DNA of 26,347 nucleotides from a virus. The translations under genes were made by a program, and so were the position numbers. Below are positions 7,360 through 18,496 of the stretch, piece by piece. The stretch is taken from positions 1 through 26,347 of IMG/VR virus record IMGVR_UViG_3300017963_000688, one strand, 5' to 3'. The stretch's first letter is position 1, and each line of letters begins with the position of its first letter. Below the pieces are notes generated by a model. That model made no database searches and had not been told where the DNA came from. It worked only from the letters and a program-made list of their open reading frames with translations.

Positions 7360-10300
7360 CTATTGTTCCTTTTGCCATTTACGAACTGCCAGTGAGAAGG
7401 CTTCTGCTGCGTTTGCGTTGTATTGTGTTTCCAGGTTAATCAATTCCCTTTGTGTTTCTTTAGAGAACTTGTTCAAGAAATCACCTACGTCACGTTTAGC
7501 AACCAAGCCTAACGGCGAAGCATTGTCTAATGCAGACCTTATGCCAGACTCAATGCTAGCAAGCTCTTCTGCGTCATCACCTGCCCTATTTAAGAGGAAG
7601 AATAGGTGTTTGCTTGCATCTTTGGTGTCGCCGACAAGTATCTGCCTGATTGCCATTTCGTAAGAAAGCGTACGCTCTGTAGGAACTTTCTTTGTCCAAC
7701 CAAGGATAGCCTGTGAAGCCTTCTGCTTGGCCTTATCTGTGGCATTAGGGTTTTTCTTGTCATAAGCATACTCAAAGCCTTTTGTTCTGGCTATTGAATA
7801 TTCCTGAGTTATGTTCTTCTCATTGAACTTGGCATCTACTTTGTCAAATAAAGCCATTGCTTGTTTAAGTGCGGCAGACTCTTTCTGTGCTAATTGGACA
7901 ATTGCATCTTTGGTTTGACTTGGATTCCATGTAGATTTCACTACTGCATCGCCAACATTTTTAGCTGTCTGAAGTGTAGGCCCACCAAAAAGATTTGGCA
8001 ATCCGTAGACTATGTCAGCCAGAATACCAACTGCGCCTCCGTCCAATATATCTTTAATGATATTAGATGAGATGGCCTTGAGGTTTCGATTCTCTTCTTT
8101 AGTGAGGTTCTTTGTTAGTGACTCGCTTTTTCCTAAAGTAAAGTCTCGTGCAACGTTGTATATCTCACCGACAATAGCCATTGAAACTAGCCATCTTACC
8201 ATTTTAGATGGGTCACGATTCTGTACGGAATCTTTGATTACGTCATTCCATACATGACCAACTTGGTCTGCACCCCATGTCTTAAATTGAGCCGAGATTC
8301 GCATGAATGGCTTATTGTCCCACCAGCTACGCTTAGTACTTAACATAACAGGGAAGGCCGTGTCTTTGACTGTTCGGTGAAGGATTGCATCTAACAGCTC
8401 TGGAGGGATGTCGTCAGCCGAAGTCAGCTTGCTTATTAATTCGTCATTTCCAAGCTCACGTAATCTATTTTTAGCTTGCCTCGGAGACTGTCCAATAGTT
8501 TCAAGAACAGATATGATTCCGCCGATTCTCTTGTCAAGAACCTTTGATATTTCGCTGTTGCTATTAAGAAGTTTCAAGTCTCTGTCGATTGAGTTCTTCT
8601 TCATCTGAGCAAGGAACACTTGGTTGCCTCTTTCAGATTTAGAGAATATCTTGCCTGCAACTTTAGTCAAGAGATGGCCAGGCTGGTATCCTTCACCAAG
8701 AGATGTATTGGAAAAGATGGCACCACGGCGTATCATTTCCTCTTCTACTTCTCTTGAATGCTTAATCCATGCACTTATAATTGGTGGGAACTCTTTTAAC
8801 GTCTTAAACAAAGTGCTAGTTGGTCCCATTGCAATTGCTTTTGGGGCTCTGTCAAGCATATTCTTTGTTATCGTCAAAGGAGATAGTCCAATCTTAGATA
8901 GGAACTGATAACCTCTAACTGCTCCGCTAATCTCCTGGCTTGCCGCAGATGCCTGTGAACCTCTTCCAAAAGAAGCTTTAATGAAAGTATCTAGTGTATT
9001 AGCTTCGTCTGCATTTGTTACTCCACGCAAAGACTCACTTTTGACGGCAAGCTTAGGGAATGGCTGGCCTTTTACGTCAGCGCCCCACTGTCTTATGCCT
9101 TCAATAGAGAGCCAGTTCTTCTGAATAAGACCTTCAAGGACTCTGTCAGGGTCCCATTCTATAAATCTATCTGGCAATGGAACTCTAGTCCGTTCAAGGT
9201 AGCCAGAAACTCCACGTAATTGATCTTGCCTGAACCTCTGCAAGTCTGCTACATATTCTTCTACTGAATTAGCAGTACCATTCTTGACGGCTTCTTGGGC
9301 GACCTCGATCACTTCAGGGGAGTTCATGCCTTTATTGGCAGCTTGCTTGAGTATCTTTTCGCCAAGTGCATTAGGAACTTGCGGGAATGCCTCGCCAGTC
9401 TTAGTCAATGAAACTTTCTTACCGCCTACTGTACGCTTAATGCCGACCTTATTTGCTTCATCGAGCATTACGTCTAGCGCTTTACGTAGTTTATCACCAC
9501 GCTCTTTTATCCATTTAGGAGGGTTAGCTTCACGTCCATTGATATACTTGGCAATACGTTCACGGTTAGCCTTATTGACACCTTTAAGTATCTTCTCTGT
9601 ATCCAAAGCAGTGTTATTTATCTGCTTCTGTGCCCTCTGGCCTACCTCATTTAAGTCCTTGGAGATAGATTTACCTTCAGGGCCAAGAGATTCAAGGTGC
9701 TTGGTATATCGACGTATATTGCGACTTGCAACTTCCTTAGTCGCACCCTTAATATCAGACAAAGTAGAACCTAAACGTGTAGCTGTTTCTGTTACTTCTG
9801 TTACAATATCAGGTATGATTGTAGTGGCACCTGCCTGTTTGCCTCCAGCTAGGGCTGGTTCTTGACTAGGCACCTTAGTTAGCGGCGGCTCCTGTGGCTT
9901 GATATGAGGCGTTTTAACCTTAATAGGCTCTACGGGAGGTGTGGCTGGAGATTTCGCCTTCACGGACGTCACAGGGGCCTTAACGGGCTCTGTGACAGAA
10001 GCAGGCCGAAACTTAGGCTTGATAGTGACTGGCTGGCCACGGAATATTATATCTTTTGCCTTCCCATCCTTTAGTAAATCACGAGCCTTTATGACTGCTT
10101 CAAACTCATCTCTCATTCCTTTTACTTTGTCTGGGTGATACTTGAAAGCCTCTTTTTGTGCGGCCTTGCGAATCTGTTCTGGAGTAGCACCCTTTTTGAG
10201 CTTGAGGAGTTTAAGGGCCCTTAATTTTTCTGTTGGGGTTAGTTTAGACCATACACCTTTAATGCCAGAGCCTAGGTATGAGAATACCGCACCAACAGCC

Positions 10301-11136
10301 ATATCCCTAAGCACTGCCTTTGGGCCTTCAAAGCCATATTCAGTGTCTGTTGGATTAATAACCGTACTAGCAGCCTTTGTTATTTGGGCAATAGCTGCGT
10401 TGATCCCATATATCTTCCCTGCTTCAGCGGCTTTAATAGTGGCAGTGATTCCTTTTGGGGTTCCACCTACGAGCTTAGTTTTAATACCTAGTGCATTAGC
10501 GGACTGTATTCCACCAGCAAACTCTGCGATTTCGCCTATAGCTTTACTAAATCCAGATGGGTCGTACCCCATGGCCCAATCAACTGCCTCAGTCAAAGTC
10601 ATATCCTTAGCTTCTTCTGCTATCATACCTTCTGGCATCACTCTTTTGATGGCAGCGTAAGCAACATCTCCTATGTGAAACATTTTGCCATTTGCATATT
10701 TGAAGAATGTGCGTATCGGTGTTTGACCAAGAAGCTTTATCCCTGCGTCTACTTTCTCTATCCTACTTGGGTTTGGAGGTAAGTCCATTCCGTCACCAAC
10801 AAAGAAATTCTTTATTCCAACTTTAGATAGGAACTTTGGAGGAGTGGTGAACTCAGATGTGGGCTGTGATGGTGGGCTTAATGGCTGGTTAAGGTTCTCG
10901 TATCCACGCTCTGCTTCGGACAAGGGTATGCCTAGGTCAAGGTGCATCTTCCATATGTCTTCAGCTGCGGTTGTAACCTCTTCTTTGTCTGTGTTGCCAG
11001 CAAAAACATTGGGGCCAGCAGCTCTTGCGTTAAGGTCGTCCAGTTCAACTTGCTCATCTTGAGTCAACGATGTGGACACACCTGCTCTGCTGTTAAGTGA
11101 GTCAAGTTCAGATTGTTCTTGTACCGTTAATGGCAT
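7360..11136 (-). CDS. Large internal virion (ejection) protein with DnaJ domain, gp16 position
   Basis: A 1258-residue protein in the gp16 position, between a gp15-like protein and the fibre. Residues 3-40 hold two copies of LTxxEQxELDxLNxRA. Residues about 190-290 are hydrophobic/Ala-Gly rich. Residues about 305-358 form a J domain (KKGATPEQIRKAA, YHPDK with H334-P-D336, then DEFEAVIKARDLLKDGK). Residues 365-440 are a Pro/Lys/Thr linker. The rest is long and helical, with a C-terminal part like large polyvalent phage proteins. No lytic transglycosylase motif was seen. In T7 the gp16 homologue is ejected and spans the cell envelope; here the J domain suggests contact with host DnaK. Start and stop are tightly coupled (TAATG before, TAG-ATG after). 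Confidence 0.85.
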   Translation of the reverse strand: MPLTVQEQSELDSLNSRAGVSTSLTQDEQVELDDLNARAAGPNVFAGNTDKEEVTTAAEDIWKMHLDLGIPLSEAERGYENLNQPLSPPSQPTSEFTTPPKFLSKVGIKNFFVGDGMDLPPNPSRIEKVDAGIKLLGQTPIRTFFKYANGKMFHIGDVAYAAIKRVMPEGMIAEEAKDMTLTEAVDWAMGYDPSGFSKAIGEIAEFAGGIQSANALGIKTKLVGGTPKGITATIKAAEAGKIYGINAAIAQITKAASTVINPTDTEYGFEGPKAVLRDMAVGAVFSYLGSGIKGVWSKLTPTEKLRALKLLKLKKGATPEQIRKAAQKEAFKYHPDKVKGMRDEFEAVIKARDLLKDGKAKDIIFRGQPVTIKPKFRPASVTEPVKAPVTSVKAKSPATPPVEPIKVKTPHIKPQEPPLTKVPSQEPALAGGKQAGATTIIPDIVTEVTETATRLGSTLSDIKGATKEVASRNIRRYTKHLESLGPEGKSISKDLNEVGQRAQKQINNTALDTEKILKGVNKANRERIAKYINGREANPPKWIKERGDKLRKALDVMLDEANKVGIKRTVGGKKVSLTKTGEAFPQVPNALGEKILKQAANKGMNSPEVIEVAQEAVKNGTANSVEEYVADLQRFRQDQLRGVSGYLERTRVPLPDRFIEWDPDRVLEGLIQKNWLSIEGIRQWGADVKGQPFPKLAVKSESLRGVTNADEANTLDTFIKASFGRGSQASAASQEISGAVRGYQFLSKIGLSPLTITKNMLDRAPKAIAMGPTSTLFKTLKEFPPIISAWIKHSREVEEEMIRRGAIFSNTSLGEGYQPGHLLTKVAGKIFSKSERGNQVFLAQMKKNSIDRDLKLLNSNSEISKVLDKRIGGIISVLETIGQSPRQAKNRLRELGNDELISKLTSADDIPPELLDAILHRTVKDTAFPVMLSTKRSWWDNKPFMRISAQFKTWGADQVGHVWNDVIKDSVQNRDPSKMVRWLVSMAIVGEIYNVARDFTLGKSESLTKNLTKEENRNLKAISSNIIKDILDGGAVGILADIVYGLPNLFGGPTLQTAKNVGDAVVKSTWNPSQTKDAIVQLAQKESAALKQAMALFDKVDAKFNEKNITQEYSIARTKGFEYAYDKKNPNATDKAKQKASQAILGWTKKVPTERTLSYEMAIRQILVGDTKDASKHLFFLLNRAGDDAEELASIESGIRSALDNASPLGLVAKRDVGDFLNKFSKETQRELINLETQYNANAAEAFSLAVRKWQKEQ

Positions 11137-13081: not shown

Positions 13082-13266
13082 TAAAATATCCCCCCTGGCA
13101 TCTTATTAAGGAACGAAGAGTATCCTTCTTTCCTGGCTTCCTTTTTTGTTTTGCCAGTAAGAGTTGCTTCAATACCCTCAATAGAGTCCGCCTCCTTAGG
13201 AAGAACACCGATGCTCCTTGAAGCAGAGGTGGCACGTCCAACCGAGTCATTCAACACTTGTCCCAT
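13081..13266 (-). CDS. Small hypothetical virion-region protein
   Basis: A 61-residue basic protein (MGQVLNDSVGRATSASRSIG through FLNKMPGGIF) with no recognised domain. It is bracketed by TAATG overlaps on both sides, so it is translated with the gp13-like and gp14-like genes. A small peptide at this place is common in related gene orders and may be a minor virion component. Confidence 0.7.
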   Translation of the reverse strand: MGQVLNDSVGRATSASRSIGVLPKEADSIEGIEATLTGKTKKEARKEGYSSFLNKMPGGIF

Positions 13267-13676
13267 TACATATACCTCGCATACATAAACGCATCTTTGT
13301 CGCCAACGAAATTCTTCATTGTGCTTTCCTTTGTAAAACCAAGATGTTCAACTAATCTTATTGCTTCAGGAAAGTCACACTCTACGTAAGCCTGAAGCCT
13401 GCTTATATTGTTGTTTTCGCAGAAGTTATTTATACTATCACGGATTACACGGAAAGCAATCAACCGCTTGTCTTTGGCTAATTGGGTCATATCAACCCAG
13501 CACCATGCCGTATGGAGATTAATAAACCTAAACCCACCAACGCCCATGACCTGGCCATCGTCCTCCAGTGTGTATAAATAACTAATCTGTCCTGGGCATT
13601 CCTTCTGCATTCCACGGCTTGTGGAGTTGTCGCCCATATAGTCCAAATCTTCTTGTATACTCTCTCTAAATATCAT
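13266..13676 (-). CDS. GNAT-fold protein, T7 gp13-like
   Basis: A 136-residue protein with an acetyltransferase-like pattern: N-terminal MIFRESIQEDLDYM, a VMGVGGFRFIN strand, an AFRVIRDSINNFCENN helix, and the C-terminal pair EAIRLVEHLGF and STMKNFVGDKDAFMYAR. It resembles the phage gp13-type GNAT family found just before the internal virion proteins; the T7 protein is needed for proper assembly of the core. The pyrophosphate-binding Q/RxxGxG/A loop is not clear, so enzymatic activity is doubtful. The gene overlaps the nozzle body by ATGA. Confidence 0.82.
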   Translation of the reverse strand: MIFRESIQEDLDYMGDNSTSRGMQKECPGQISYLYTLEDDGQVMGVGGFRFINLHTAWCWVDMTQLAKDKRLIAFRVIRDSINNFCENNNISRLQAYVECDFPEAIRLVEHLGFTKESTMKNFVGDKDAFMYARYM

Positions 13677-15772
13677 CGTCCAGTTTTGCTCACTCTTGAT
13701 AAAATAGCTCTTACTGTTAATGGGGTTGGATTAGTAACCCCAGACGTTTTCTTGCTCGTTACTATCATTGGGTCGTCAATAGTGAATCCTGCGTCCTGAT
13801 GAACAGTTACGTCACCAGTGAATAGGTCGTCTATTTCAGACTTATTAATCAGTTCAGCCGATGTGAGGTCAACATCGTATGTATCGCTTTCACTATCACC
13901 ATAAGACACATCCTTTGAATCAAGGACGCTGAGGACGGCTTCTGCGGCTTTCTTTGTGCTACCATGTGTTGAACCACCTCCTGTGTCTGTATCAAGTCTC
14001 ATGGGCTTTACAATAGGCGTAAACGGCAAGCCTACGTGTACTACAGAGGCGGCATCGTCCAGCGTAATCTCACCGCCAGATACCGTCTTTGGACCCACAG
14101 AGATACCGTCAGCCAATACAGCCACAGTCTCACCTTCAAGATAGTCAAGGCCTGTAATAGTTGTGGTAGCCACATCGTCATAAATATAGCCAGCATCGAC
14201 AAAATGTGCGTCATCATCATCTGTGAATCTCCTTGGAGTAAACCTCTCAATTACCACTACTTCTTCGCTATTCAAGGTACGGTTCACTGATAGCCATACC
14301 TCGTCTTCGTTTGTACTTGGTATTACACAGCCTGAATTAACGCTACCGTTTGTTGGGTGATTGGAGTAAGCTATTACATTCTGGTCCTTTTGGTAGGTCA
14401 GGGAATGAAGTGTGCCATCTGCCATACCAAACCATAGGATTGATTCTGGGTGCTCTTGGTGTGCAAGCCATGTTACGGTAGAGGTTGCTGTGAAATGCTC
14501 TGCTAGCAAGGTTAGTTCTGGGGTAGTATATTTCTGTTCATTGGCATTGTATGTGTACTCCATTAACTTCTTGCCAACAACGTCAATGAAGACAATAGCG
14601 TTGTTTATCTTAATACCTTGTACATCAGCACAACCATACCCTGACTGCTCGTCTACTGTGAAGTTTGTTGGAGTAATAGGGGTGCCAATGCGGTTTGTCT
14701 GTATTGACCATGGCTTACCTGATGTGCCAATGGCTACAGTCTTGTCTACTGTGTCAACCCAGCGTATCTCATTACCAGAGCTTATCGAAACTGCAAAGGA
14801 ATTGTCATCGTTCACTCCTGCATCAAAGTTCTCATAGTCACCAGTCCTGCTTAACCACACGTCCCGCCTAGCCCCGTATATGGCCCTGTCAGAGAGAAAC
14901 GTGATAGACTTAGGGTATCCCTGCACATCACTCCATGAGCCTTCAGCCCAGCGTAAGATAGCTTGCCCAGATGATTTACTGCCAAGATAGGATAGGACTG
15001 TGACTTGCACTGAGGTTGAGCTATTGTAAGAGTCAACCCTTACTATGCCTATCGTCAGGCTGGTATTGTTGGTGAGGTCTGCACTAAAGCCAGATGACAT
15101 GCCTGCTTGCGGTGCTATTCTATATGTTACGTTACTTGAATTCTCTGTGGCTGTGAACTGTATATTCCTATCGTTCTTTGAAACAAACGACCTGAATACC
15201 TCCCAGTCATTACCAGCTACTTTCCTCTGTAGCTCTACGGTTCCAGTCCATGTCCCATGGGTATTAAACGTAAAATTGCCTTTAATATTTAACGCAGAGC
15301 TTGTAGATGTGCCAGTGGTAGATGTCTTAGAGTCTCCACTTGACATTGGGTAGGTGAGTTCAAATAAAGCCCCTACATGGCCAGTCTCAAATGTAGCAGA
15401 GCTAGCCACTAATTGACCAGTCCCACCAACTGTCTCTGTTCCTGTATAAGTCATAGTAACGTCATCGTCATTAGCAAGGTCGTTCCTGAGTAGGAATGGG
15501 CCTTTCTCAAAGACGACTTTATCAAGAGAGAATGTGGTTGGGCTTGTTCTGGATAGTTTGTATTGGGGGTAATCTACGTGAGTAATCCACATTACATCAC
15601 CTAGTTGCTCAAATTGTAGCTGAGGCAGGTCAGAGATGCTATACGGAGTTGCTATTGGGGCGCCGTCGCCGTCTAATAGGGCTCCGTCAAAGAAGAAGCT
15701 GGCGTATTCATGGCCAAACTCAATAGTATAGGCTATTGTGGCTGAGTATATAAATGGAACCATTCTTGTCAT
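13673..15772 (-). CDS. Tail tubular B / nozzle-like protein, body (lacks N-terminal cap)
   Basis: A 699-residue protein that begins inside the family sequence. Its first line (MVPFIYSATIAYTIEFGHEY) corresponds to the 'RLIPFxFSxxQAYVLEFGxxY' block that normally follows the GEVSPxxDARxDxxKYxxGCRRLENM cap. Further family landmarks are IATPYSISDLPQLQF, the DVMWITHVDYPQYKLSR block, FLSDRAIYGARRDVWLSRTGDYENF, and late beta-rich repeats. Relatives are often annotated as FCCH-domain or stabilisation proteins and are thought to form the tail nozzle. The start is real: TAAGGAAACAATATG gives its own ribosome site nine bases after the GLUG gene. The missing cap is supplied, if at all, by one of the two ORFs upstream. 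Confidence 0.85.
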   Translation of the reverse strand: MTRMVPFIYSATIAYTIEFGHEYASFFFDGALLDGDGAPIATPYSISDLPQLQFEQLGDVMWITHVDYPQYKLSRTSPTTFSLDKVVFEKGPFLLRNDLANDDDVTMTYTGTETVGGTGQLVASSATFETGHVGALFELTYPMSSGDSKTSTTGTSTSSALNIKGNFTFNTHGTWTGTVELQRKVAGNDWEVFRSFVSKNDRNIQFTATENSSNVTYRIAPQAGMSSGFSADLTNNTSLTIGIVRVDSYNSSTSVQVTVLSYLGSKSSGQAILRWAEGSWSDVQGYPKSITFLSDRAIYGARRDVWLSRTGDYENFDAGVNDDNSFAVSISSGNEIRWVDTVDKTVAIGTSGKPWSIQTNRIGTPITPTNFTVDEQSGYGCADVQGIKINNAIVFIDVVGKKLMEYTYNANEQKYTTPELTLLAEHFTATSTVTWLAHQEHPESILWFGMADGTLHSLTYQKDQNVIAYSNHPTNGSVNSGCVIPSTNEDEVWLSVNRTLNSEEVVVIERFTPRRFTDDDDAHFVDAGYIYDDVATTTITGLDYLEGETVAVLADGISVGPKTVSGGEITLDDAASVVHVGLPFTPIVKPMRLDTDTGGGSTHGSTKKAAEAVLSVLDSKDVSYGDSESDTYDVDLTSAELINKSEIDDLFTGDVTVHQDAGFTIDDPMIVTSKKTSGVTNPTPLTVRAILSRVSKTGR

Positions 15773-15781
15773 ATTGTTTCC

Positions 15782-16954
15782 TTATACAGCTTGACATATC
15801 TGTTTAAAATCTGCGTTCTCTTGCCACTTTAATCTTGGGTAATCGTTTCCCTCATCTATCATCCATATAGTACTAAAATCCCATCCCGAATAAGTTGCTT
15901 GTTGTTGCATTGAAGATGTTGTTGATTTTGCTATACCTGCTACGTCGCCGTCTGTACCGACATCATTAAGTGGTGCTGGTGGAGTTGCTATTAAGTCGCC
16001 ATCCCAGTATATGCCAGTATGGGTCAGTGTTCCACCATCAGAGTTATTTCCTATAAACCCTCCAATCTCACCTGGTATCCCAGAATCTTCAATTCCGCTT
16101 ATAATTACAGATGAATAACAATTAGTTATAGAATTGTTTGTACCGCCTTTTAAACCTATTAAACCACCAACCCTAGTTAATGAATCTGTTCCAGATGTAT
16201 TTATAATCGAACCTGTGGCATAACAATTAGCAATGTCGCCACCAGAAAAATAACATAACCCGCCTGCTGAAAAAAAGTTACGGCTAGACGTATTTATTAC
16301 ATTAGCTGAACATATACTCATATTAGCATTAGTTGTGTGAATCAGCCCACCAGACTGATTGTTTTGGCTTCCACTAATAGAACCTTGAACGTGCACGTTT
16401 GTAATGGCAGTTGCCCCAAAATCGTTTGAGGTTAGTAAAGCACATGCCGAACCTGCATTAGTTATTGCCATATTTGATAAGGTTAAATTTTCTATTGTAG
16501 CACTGTTTACAGACCTAAAAAAGCTAACAGTTCCATTAGAAGCGTCCATTGAAATATTGCTTATTGTGAAGTAGTTACCGTCAAAAGAGCCAATAAACGG
16601 TAATCCTGGCGTACATAATGGCACAAAACCAGAGCCAGTGGCGTCAAGATTATTCATTAGTTCATAATCGCCACTTCTCAGATGAGTACCCTCAACACCG
16701 ATTTTCATTAAATCCGACATTGTATATATCTGAATCTTAGTTGGGTCAGGCGTAGGCCCTTCATAGTAGCAAGCCGCCCCGTTCCCTACCACAATCATCT
16801 CAGTGCCTGGCCTCTTCTCTACGCTGCCATATTTACGAGGTATCATGTTCTCTAGCCTGCGACAGCCAGAGGCGTACTTTTCTGTGTCAGTGCGTGTGTC
16901 TATTTTGGGGCTGAACTCACCGCCTGAGAATGTTACTGTGTTTATATTAGTCAT
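15782..16954 (-). CDS. Nozzle N-terminal cap fused to GLUG-type beta-helix domain
   Basis: A 390-residue fusion. Residues 1-55 repeat the nozzle cap (GGEFSPKIDTRTD, EKYASGCRRLENMIP, KRPGTEMI). Residues 56-70 are a linker (YYEGPTPDP). Residues 71-378 look like GLUG-repeat bacterial surface proteins: 'YELMNNLDATGSG', 'FIGSFDGNYFTISNISM', repeated GGLI/GGFIG and ITNCYSS/IANCYATGS turns, and the typical closing block SGWDFSTIWMIDEGNDYPRL. This is a right-handed beta-helix fold that may bind host surface glycans or proteins. The DNA is AT-richer than its neighbours (about 37% GC over 16081-16440 by hand count). The start at 16954 is chosen over 16969 because GAGGATGG precedes it and it mirrors the MTNIN start of the other cap copy. 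Confidence 0.82.
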   Translation of the reverse strand: MTNINTVTFSGGEFSPKIDTRTDTEKYASGCRRLENMIPRKYGSVEKRPGTEMIVVGNGAACYYEGPTPDPTKIQIYTMSDLMKIGVEGTHLRSGDYELMNNLDATGSGFVPLCTPGLPFIGSFDGNYFTISNISMDASNGTVSFFRSVNSATIENLTLSNMAITNAGSACALLTSNDFGATAITNVHVQGSISGSQNNQSGGLIHTTNANMSICSANVINTSSRNFFSAGGLCYFSGGDIANCYATGSIINTSGTDSLTRVGGLIGLKGGTNNSITNCYSSVIISGIEDSGIPGEIGGFIGNNSDGGTLTHTGIYWDGDLIATPPAPLNDVGTDGDVAGIAKSTTSSMQQQATYSGWDFSTIWMIDEGNDYPRLKWQENADFKQICQAV

Positions 16955-17141
16955 ATGTTCCATCCTCATTGCTGACCGCTATCTTAGTAGTCCCAGGCCT
17001 CTTAGTGGCATTACCATAGACATCCGGTATCATGTTCTCCAAGCGTCTGCAACCACCAGTGTATTTCTCAATGTCCTTTCGGGCATCTATTTCTGGCGTT
17101 ACTTCACCTGAATTGAAATTGACTACATTTATATTGGTCAT
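16947..17141 (-). CDS. Free nozzle N-terminal cap peptide (duplicate copy)
   Basis: A 64-residue ORF, MTNINVVNFNSGEVTPEIDA through the GCRRLENMIP block to KRPGTTKIAV, ending DGTYD and TAA. It aligns end to end with residues 1-55 of the GLUG fusion (28 of 43 identical by hand over the core) and with the cap of intact family members. It stops just where those proteins continue into the body. The next gene's ATG lies inside its last codons (ATGACTAA), so the two are translationally coupled. It could be a functional cap that associates with the body in trans, or the residue of a duplication. Conservation of all the diagnostic cap residues argues against simple decay. Confidence 0.75.
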   Translation of the reverse strand: MTNINVVNFNSGEVTPEIDARKDIEKYTGGCRRLENMIPDVYGNATKRPGTTKIAVSNEDGTYD

Positions 17142-17560: not shown

Positions 17561-17750
17561 GGGTAGTTTTCTTTCCTGTTGACTTTGGTGCTAGGTTTCC
17601 GGTAAGGAATGTCTTCGATAGACCTGACCTTTTGCGTTCTTCTTTTACTGCAAATTCTTCTGCCTCGCTCTGTACGGTTGGTACGGGAGGTGGCTCTGGT
17701 ACTGGTGGTGCTTCAATTGGGTCTGGTGTTCCGCCAAATACGCTTCCCAT
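17553..17750 (-). CDS. Small proline-rich structural-region protein
   Basis: A 65-residue protein: MGSVFGG, a Pro-rich stretch (PPVPEPPPVPT), a charged helix (EEFAVKEERKRSGL) and TFLTGNLAP ending KKTTLG. Small proteins with a Pro-rich N-terminus, a basic helix and a 'T-I/F-L-T-G ... K-T-x-L-G' end are usual between portal/adaptor and tail genes of such phages. Role unknown. AAGGAGACGATAATG gives both the ribosome site and the overlap with the gp11-like stop. Confidence 0.8.
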   Translation of the reverse strand: MGSVFGGTPDPIEAPPVPEPPPVPTVQSEAEEFAVKEERKRSGLSKTFLTGNLAPKSTGKKTTLG

Positions 17751-18496
17751 TATCGTCTCCTTGATATATTGTGAGTAAATCGTGCATCATTCCATGTTAG
17801 TTTGGCTAAGTTGCCCTTGCCTTCTTGTCTACTTATTGTTCTTGCTCTACTAGAGAGTCTGGCGTATTCACCAAGAAGCATATTCCTTAACGACTGTGCC
17901 CCTGAGTCAATACCAGATAAGGGATTGAGCAGTGCGAGTGCGAGTTGATTTATGAACATCTCTGTGAACAGTGAATCCCACTCTGTAGTATCTGCGACTT
18001 GTTTGATATAAACTATATCAAGTTCAGTCTCAGTTGATAATATATTATTGCTTTCAAGTGCCCAGTCCTGCTTGGAGTCTGTTGCACTGTTTATGTCTAT
18101 TACTGCATAGAGCCTAAGTGAGTCTGCTGGCAGGTCATATTCTGCTCCATATACATCTGTTGCAGAAGCTGACACCTCCACCCACTTGCCAGCTCCAAGG
18201 TCTGTATCAAAGTCGTCTGAGGTATGAGCTATTGCACATTTATACTGAACAGAGTCCTCATATACATACTGGTCTGTGGTATATACAGTCTCAGTCTTCC
18301 ATCCAGATGATAACCTAAGCGGTACACGGGCGAACTGCCAGTTGAAACTTCTTGTTAGCGAATCTCTTACTTGGGCAAAATGCAGGTTGGCCTGTTCGCC
18401 TTGGACTGTTGTTTGCAAGGCTTCTGTCATTTGCTTTGCGCCAATCCTAGCTAGTGACTGGTTTGCTAATGCAACTTCTTCTGTTGTTAATGCCAT
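17750..18496 (-). CDS. Tail tubular protein A (gp11-like adaptor) with CBM-like insert
   Basis: A 248-residue protein with the adaptor signature: ALTTEEVALANQSLARIGA, FAQVRDSLTRSFNWQFAR, DLPADSLRLYAV, and C-terminal FTEMFINQLALALLNPLSG. Gp11-type proteins form the ring between portal and nozzle. Residues about 65-108 interrupt the usual order with a segment (YEDSVQYKCAIAHTSDDF, then KWVEV) like family 5/12 carbohydrate-binding modules, which also appear in other phage tail proteins. It is the first gene after a strong terminator. GAGG lies nine bases before the ATG. Confidence 0.87.
   Translation of the reverse strand: MALTTEEVALANQSLARIGAKQMTEALQTTVQGEQANLHFAQVRDSLTRSFNWQFARVPLRLSSGWKTETVYTTDQYVYEDSVQYKCAIAHTSDDFDTDLGAGKWVEVSASATDVYGAEYDLPADSLRLYAVIDINSATDSKQDWALESNNILSTETELDIVYIKQVADTTEWDSLFTEMFINQLALALLNPLSGIDSGAQSLRNMLLGEYARLSSRARTISRQEGKGNLAKLTWNDARFTHNISRRR

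What the first reader, a model, noticed from the sequence alone, without database searches (positions are those of the whole stretch)
15782..16750. GLUG-type beta-helix domain acquired onto a tail nozzle cap
Residues 71-378 of the fusion read like GLUG/pectin-lyase-like bacterial surface proteins, including the closing 'GWDF ... W-x-I ... YP-x-L' block. GC drops to about 37% over 16081-16440 against about 40-48% in sampled flanking lines. A bacterial adhesin-like module fixed to the tail tube would be an additional receptor-binding or decoration device beside the fibre.
Basis: partly seen in the sequence, partly recalled or inferred. Interest (0 to 1): 0.7.

Follow-up and report, generated by a model that had tools for sequence, protein, structure and literature searches.

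The report
Split tail nozzle carrying adhesin arms
In this short-tailed phage the ring protein that forms the tail's exit nozzle is encoded in pieces, and its short docking arm exists as two spare genes, one of which carries a bacterial-adhesin-like domain, which points to a plug-in system for decorating the tail with cell-surface-binding parts.

Summary
The GLUG-type beta-helix is real, but it is not fused to a whole nozzle. The nozzle (phrog_376) is split into three minus-strand ORFs: a 64-aa free N-terminal arm, a second arm joined to a GLUG domain (395 aa), and a 'headless' 699-aa body. The body model aligns over its whole length with T7 gp12 63-790; the missing stretch is the one that, in T7, supplies three strands of the adaptor-facing platform barrel. 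Among 132 contigs classified, 106 keep arm and body in one ORF, 13 have free arm(s) plus a headless body, and 6 have free arms with no body on the stretch. Six phages, the window included, carry arm-GLUG proteins; each has exactly two arms. The body tree needs four changes between split and fused. One phage has an arm-InlB-repeat protein beside an intact nozzle. GLUG domains also sit at two other nozzle sites. Both arms of a pair are under purifying selection. Best reading: free arms complete the platform barrel in trans and so hang adhesin-like cargo on the tail. Docking in trans, stoichiometry and receptor binding are inferred. The literature searches made found no split nozzle.

The parts
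16947..17141 (-). Free nozzle arm 1 (64 aa, no cargo), phrog_376 positions 7-58
   Evidence: phrogs E 4.9e-13; 60% identical to arm 2; dN 0.33, dS saturated against arm 2
15782..16954 (-). Arm-GLUG protein (390 aa from the ATG at 16954; the longest ORF starts at 16969)
   Evidence: start region with AGGA box 8 nt upstream
16784..16954 (-). Nozzle arm 2 (first 57 residues of the arm-GLUG protein)
   Evidence: phrog_376 positions 6-56, E 4.7e-15
15785..16759 (-). GLUG-type right-handed beta-helix cargo with a short C-terminal tail
   Evidence: profile hit to IgA1 proteases E 6e-10; Foldseek and VIA-align matches; GC 39.2%, GC3 27%
13673..15772 (-). [quoted passage not shown]
   Evidence: phrog_376 positions 66-710, E 1.7e-147; model aligns with Carin1 nozzle 71-829 (Z 33.1) and T7 gp12 63-790 (Z 21.4)
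15779..15784 (-). TAAGGA ribosome-binding box of the body gene, 6 nt before its ATG; it overlaps the stop codon of the arm-GLUG gene
17750..18496 (-). Adaptor (gp11-type, phrog_394), presumed docking partner of the platform
   Evidence: phrogs E 1e-28

Best explanation
The podophage nozzle chain is cut between its N-terminal platform arm and its beta-propeller. SHOWN: three separate cistrons (free arm, arm-GLUG, headless body); the same layout in divergent phages; conserved arm residues; purifying selection on both arms; a body fold that lacks only the arm. INFERRED: arms made as separate polypeptides slot their strands into the C-terminal platform barrel of the body (strand complementation in trans), rebuilding the ring that docks on the adaptor. 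An arm that bears a GLUG beta-helix thereby hangs that domain on the outside of the neck/tail near the fibre docks, where it most likely binds host surface polysaccharide or protein. Two arm genes allow a mixed ring of bare and decorated positions, and cargo can be changed without touching the DNA channel.
For: Arm/body division at phrog_376 56/66. Body model residues 1-699 align with T7 gp12 63-790, 8ck1 71-829 and 9efk 73-818. In T7 three strands of the platform barrel come from the 45-residue N-terminus (PMC6702177 section 8); [quoted passage not shown] The last ~110 residues of the headless body are the least confident of the model (block pLDDT 47-77 against mostly 80-95 before), as an incomplete barrel might be. 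Split architecture in 13 of 132 contigs, plus 6 with free arms; split/fused needs 4 changes on the body tree. Exactly two arms in 7 of 7 searched records of phages with arm-cargo proteins (G001-G007), against 127 places in 127 records of named phages. L141: arm-InlB repeat protein beside an intact nozzle. 27 free arms keep the core residues of 107 fused arms (G12, C31, N36, G50: 27 of 27 each). dN 0.28-0.55, dS 1.75-4.05 or saturated in 9 of 9 arm pairs. Junction length in fused nozzles is 6 residues in 89 of 105, so the cut is a discrete change. Cargo differs: GLUG (6 phages), YEN-type tails, a 188-aa unknown (L074), InlB repeat.
Against: No structure or virion proteomics shows a free arm in a particle. 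Mutual information between arm columns and the last 160 columns of fused nozzles was not above expectation (25 of the top 100 pairs vs 28 expected; 56 rows), so the strand pairing has no covariation support here. The arm part of the arm-GLUG model is not resolved (block pLDDT 27-38). A binding target is unknown.
Confidence: 0.58

Rival explanations
1. Arms no longer complete the platform: the body has compensated, and the free arms and arm-cargo proteins bind a different or additional site (for example the adaptor ring), as add-on decoration only.
For: L141 keeps an intact nozzle and still has an extra arm-cargo protein. Two arms per genome could match 12 adaptor sites rather than 6 platforms. 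No covariation signal between arm and platform.
Against: Free arms keep the same core residues as fused ones; none of the 132 contigs has a headless body without an arm on the stretch (but most loci were fetched through arms); no replacement N-terminus is common to all headless bodies.
Confidence: 0.2
2. The pieces are joined in the cell by stop-codon readthrough or frameshifting, giving a single nozzle with an internal GLUG domain.
For: In the window the arm-GLUG and body ORFs are in the same frame, separated by one TAA and 9 nt.
Against: The relation is not conserved: frame offset 1 in L049, L056 and L074, 2 in L066, L077 and L052; in L033, L035, L037 and L038 about 1.1 kb lies between arm and body (other genes, as read in L033), in L072 one gene. 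Stops are TAA, TAG and TGA. The window body has its own TAAGGA box.
Confidence: 0.05
3. Pseudogene decay or assembly error: a broken nozzle gene plus a tandem duplicate.
For: Very short ORF (64 aa); repeats can arise in assembly; single cases such as L134 (one TAA, 9-nt gap, same frame) may be simple breaks.
Against: The layout recurs in independent metagenome contigs; arms differ by about 40% in protein with saturated synonymous sites, yet low dN; body ORF intact over 699 codons.
Confidence: 0.03
4. The GLUG domain is an enzyme (polysaccharide lyase or hydrolase type beta-helix) that clears host glycans rather than an adhesin.
For: Lyases and tailspikes share the fold (Z 13-15).
Against: The clear top matches (Z 21.9-24.8) are the GLUG parts of IgA1 proteases, not lyases; active-site residues were not analysed.
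Confidence: 0.14

Closest known systems
T7 gp12 / Carin1 / LME-1 (9efk) tail nozzles, phrog_376-type tail tubular protein B
   Same: Arm motif, propeller body and platform C-terminus by profile and fold; adaptor gene upstream
   Different: Those are one chain; here the arm is separate and duplicated, and one copy carries a beta-helix
GLUG region of IgA1 proteases (M26) and bacterial GLUG surface proteins
   Same: Fold and sequence profile of the cargo
   Different: No protease part in the 395-aa protein; carried by a phage nozzle arm
N-terminal anchor domains of tailspikes and fibres (e.g. Klebsiella phages, PMC6872550, PMC12692247: listings only)
   Same: A short conserved N-terminal piece fixes a variable surface-binding domain to the tail
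   Different: The anchor here is a piece taken from the nozzle itself, which the headless nozzle body presumably needs
Dual tubeA (adaptor) phages such as phiGT1 (PMC10386132, passages read)
   Same: Paralogous neck proteins; those authors infer two rings or one heteromeric ring
   Different: There the whole adaptor is duplicated; here only the nozzle arm
[quoted passage not shown]
   Same: Nozzle/adaptor proteins reported to bind a host receptor
   Different: No GLUG cargo or split is mentioned in that abstract

Membership tests
Podophage nozzle (phrog_376 type) | Body matches the family profile over propeller and platform | tested here: met
   positions 66-710, E 1.7e-147; Z 33.1 to 8ck1
Podophage nozzle (phrog_376 type) | N-terminal arm and body in one polypeptide | tested here: not met
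   arm twice in separate ORFs; the open frame of the body extends only 3 codons further upstream
Podophage nozzle (phrog_376 type) | Adaptor gene (phrog_394) close upstream | tested here: met
   17750-18496, E 1e-28
Podophage nozzle (phrog_376 type) | Hexameric ring on a dodecameric adaptor | not testable with these tools
   needs structure or virion data
Pfam Glug (PF07581) | Score above curated cut-off | tested here: not met
   window protein 12.9 vs 20.5 bits; relatives L056 69.0 and L077 22.3 pass
IgA1-protease GLUG beta-helix fold | Same fold over the whole domain | tested here: met
   Z 24.8, 280 aligned, rmsd 3.5 to 3n6z; Z 23.4-24.7 to 7uvk, 7uvl, 6xja, 6xjb
M26 peptidase | Peptidase domain after the GLUG part | tested here: not met
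   only a partial Peptidase_M26_N match below cut-off; no other M26 model listed at E<=1; protein ends after the GLUG part
Receptor-binding protein | Binds a host surface molecule and is present in the virion | not tested
   needs experiment

The most novel reading that the evidence does not exclude
A class of short-tailed phages builds a heteromeric nozzle: headless propeller subunits are completed by two kinds of free platform arms supplied in trans, and the arms are interchangeable docking tags on which unrelated adhesin-type domains (GLUG helices, InlB-repeat protein) are mounted, so that surface recognition can be changed without altering the DNA-gating channel; the mixture of two arms breaks the six-fold symmetry of the tail.
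Probability: 0.4. Interest if true: 0.85.

Novelty: new variant of a known kind. Interest (0 to 1): 0.72.

Why it matters
The nozzle is the gate that holds DNA in and opens on infection, and the solved nozzles cited here are single-chain proteins. Repeated fission at one defined point, retention of two arm paralogues and changing adhesin-like cargo would show how a machine with a strict mechanical job can also serve as an exchangeable host-recognition platform. It yields a direct test: does the body need a free arm to form the ring, and are both arms in the virion? It would also give a short natural tag for mounting proteins on phage tails.

Tried and rejected
Considered and set aside: readthrough or frameshift fusion (frame relation not conserved); recoded stop codons (TAA, TAG and TGA all end arm ORFs); pseudogene decay (dN/dS, recurrence). 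Low GC as proof of recent transfer: it does not hold in L049 and L056. Donor of the GLUG domain: the tree with 44 cellular rows has mostly open forks (30 of 50) and names no donor; 57 rows passed the coverage filter but only 53 entered because labels of some coincided, and L073, L076 and L077 are not in it. Arm tree: 57 columns, 17 of 28 forks open, so the hint that GLUG sits on different arm lineages (arm 1 in L072, arm 2 in the window) is weak. Covariation between arm and platform: no signal. Single-protein scans with the arm-GLUG protein and the portal gave little. The alignment-guided genome scan gave 80 kept loci, of which 2 (L176, L210) have a nozzle arm; none has an arm-GLUG protein. 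Novelty: ten paper searches listed no split nozzle; this is a held open-licence library only, and the Carin1 paper itself is not held. Bias: loci were fetched with capsid, portal, body, arm and arm-GLUG queries, so 13 of 132 is not a frequency in nature; near-identical contigs were not collapsed, only 12 duplicate fetches of one contig; five fetched loci without any nozzle part on the stretch (L009, L010, L013, L016, L021) are not in the 132. The GLUG profile was built from the window, L049, L066 (two) and L056, so only its hits in other loci count as independent.

Full report
WHAT IS THERE. The window is a 26,347-base virus record. On the minus strand lie terminase, portal, scaffold, major capsid protein, adaptor (gp11 type) and then the nozzle region (portal, capsid protein, adaptor and nozzle by PHROGs; the others by position and my reading). 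The nozzle, in family phrog_376, is in three ORFs: 16947-17141 (64 aa, profile 7-58), 15782-16969 (395 aa, profile 6-56 followed by another domain) and 13673-15772 (699 aa, profile 66-710, E 1.7e-147). The arm genes overlap by 8 nt if the second starts at its MTNIN methionine (16954); the body follows the arm-GLUG gene after 9 nt with its own TAAGGA box.

THE CARGO. Pfam gives only sub-threshold Glug and M26_N matches for the window protein. Alignment with relatives gives a profile that hits IgA1 proteases at E 6e-10. AF2 from five sequences gives a beta-rich core with block pLDDT of 70-87 over about 71-250, with the arm unresolved. The four Foldseek matches below 1e-3 in the PDB are all IgA1 proteases; VIA-align gives Z 21.9-24.8 for six IgA1-protease entries, well above lyases and tailspikes at 13-15. 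One record labelled as a phage that matches it (MT836748, L030) is by its genes a bacterial contig.

THE SPLIT. In relatives the arm runs straight into the body: 6 linker residues in 89 of 105 fused nozzles measurable, 124 in one (L012). Of 132 distinct contigs with nozzle or GLUG matches, 106 are fused, 13 have free arm(s) and a headless body (window, L033, L035, L037, L038, L049, L052, L056, L066, L072, L074, L077, L134), 6 have free arms but no body on the stretch, 1 has a fused nozzle and an extra arm protein, 3 are cut by the end of the stretch and 3 have GLUG only. L134 may be a simple break. The body tree (42 rows, SH-aLRT) needs 4 changes for split/fused, at least 3 forced by strongly supported branches; direction is not told by the count.

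TWO ARMS. Window, L049, L066, L072, L077, L056 and L074 have two free arms each; L141 has one free and one fused. A search of the whole records behind L049, L066, L056, L072, L077, L074 and L141 found exactly two arms in 7 of 7, and one in the records of L011 and L033. Named phages: 127 records with an arm match, 127 places, so none has two at E<=0.01. Arm pairs show dN 0.28-0.55 with dS 1.75-4.05 or not computable (saturated, 4 of 9 pairs). The 27 free arms keep the residues that are nearly invariant in 107 fused arms.

CARGO VARIETY. GLUG on arms: window, L049, L066 (both arms), L072, L056, L077 (after a stretch of YEN-type repeats). L074: 188 further residues without a family match beyond the arm; L141: InlB-type repeat (Flg_new_2, E 4.7e-9) and a following stretch that looks LamG-like to me (by eye only), beside an intact nozzle. 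In the L033 group and L052 the extra domain sits on the N-terminus of the body instead. GLUG also occurs at body position about 285, at the start of a separate second half (L075, L076, L080), and at about 462 (L137, L073). In the GLUG tree the arm-borne GLUG of L056 is sister to the mid-body GLUG of L137 (98), and the two GLUGs of L066 are sisters (98): the module appears to change place within nozzle genes and to be duplicated with its arm.

ANATOMY OF THE CUT. The model of the headless body (19 sequences, pLDDT 81) aligns from residue 1 to 699 with Carin1 nozzle 71-829 (Z 33.1), HRP29 65-774 (22.7) and T7 gp12 63-790 (21.4, 6r21), and from 1 to 697 with LME-1 73-818 (27.6). In T7 the C-terminal platform barrel takes three of its strands from the 45-residue N-terminus (PMC6702177, section 8 read), and the platform contacts two adaptor subunits (passages); SU10 is described likewise (PMC9509320, section 12 read). 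The cut thus frees just the strands that complete the platform. The last ~110 residues of the headless model have lower confidence, which fits but does not prove an unfinished barrel. A covariation test between arm and platform gave nothing.

MECHANISM. Most likely the free arms complete the platform in trans and carry their cargo to the neck/tail surface next to the fibre docks. Shown: gene layout, recurrence, conservation, fold of cargo and body. Inferred: docking in trans, copy numbers, exposure, host binding. That nozzle and adaptor proteins can act in adsorption is reported for Vibrio phage OWB (PMC7241545, abstract). Paralogous neck rings have been proposed for phages with two adaptor genes (PMC10386132, passages).

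MOSAIC SURROUNDINGS. L006 shares 85% of the capsid protein but 31% of the adaptor and 38% of the nozzle body (best segment), fused; L066 shares 73%, 52% and 60%, split. The neck/tail block has thus been exchanged separately from the capsid gene, as expected for host-contact parts.

VERDICT. A real feature, larger than reported: not simply an acquired domain but a recurrent split of the nozzle with duplicated, cargo-bearing arms. I rate it a new variant of a known kind.

Noticed in passing
window 7360-11136 (-): The 1258-aa protein downstream of the internal virion genes carries a DnaJ (J) domain at residues 309-361 (Pfam 32.1 bits, cut-off 27.8).
   Followed up: no
window 17750-18496 (-), residues 66-109: The adaptor holds a small CBM_5_12-like insert (20.7 bits, below cut-off); the same stretch matches the nozzle of another phage, L003 6377-6499, at 54% identity: a small domain that may move between neck genes.
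   Followed up: no
L072 8312-8725; L077 6998-7414 and 7822-10593; L079 6989-7411: Free arms without GLUG often have tails of repeated 'xCYENxIVxYENE'-like strands; similar motifs occur in neighbouring neck genes.
   Followed up: no
L049 5622-5999; L056 3688-4074; L072 8734-9147; L077 7427-7822; L079 7423-7836: A 125-137 aa protein of unknown family recurs between or next to the arm genes (relationship judged by eye); the two scanned against PHROGs (L072, L077) have no match at E<=0.01.
   Followed up: partly
L012 3055-4116: A 124-residue insert at the same arm/body junction inside one ORF, partly matching phrog_30593.
   Followed up: partly
L030 (MT836748.1): A record labelled Bacteriophage sp. 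that by its genes (ABC transporters, long M26-like surface protein) looks like bacterial chromosome.
   Followed up: no
L075, L076, L080, L082, L085, L137: Nozzle cut in the middle of the body (profile about 285-301) in several phages, with or without GLUG at the new N-terminus.
   Followed up: partly
window 13266-13676 (-): A GNAT-type gene directly after the nozzle is kept in many relatives.
   Followed up: no
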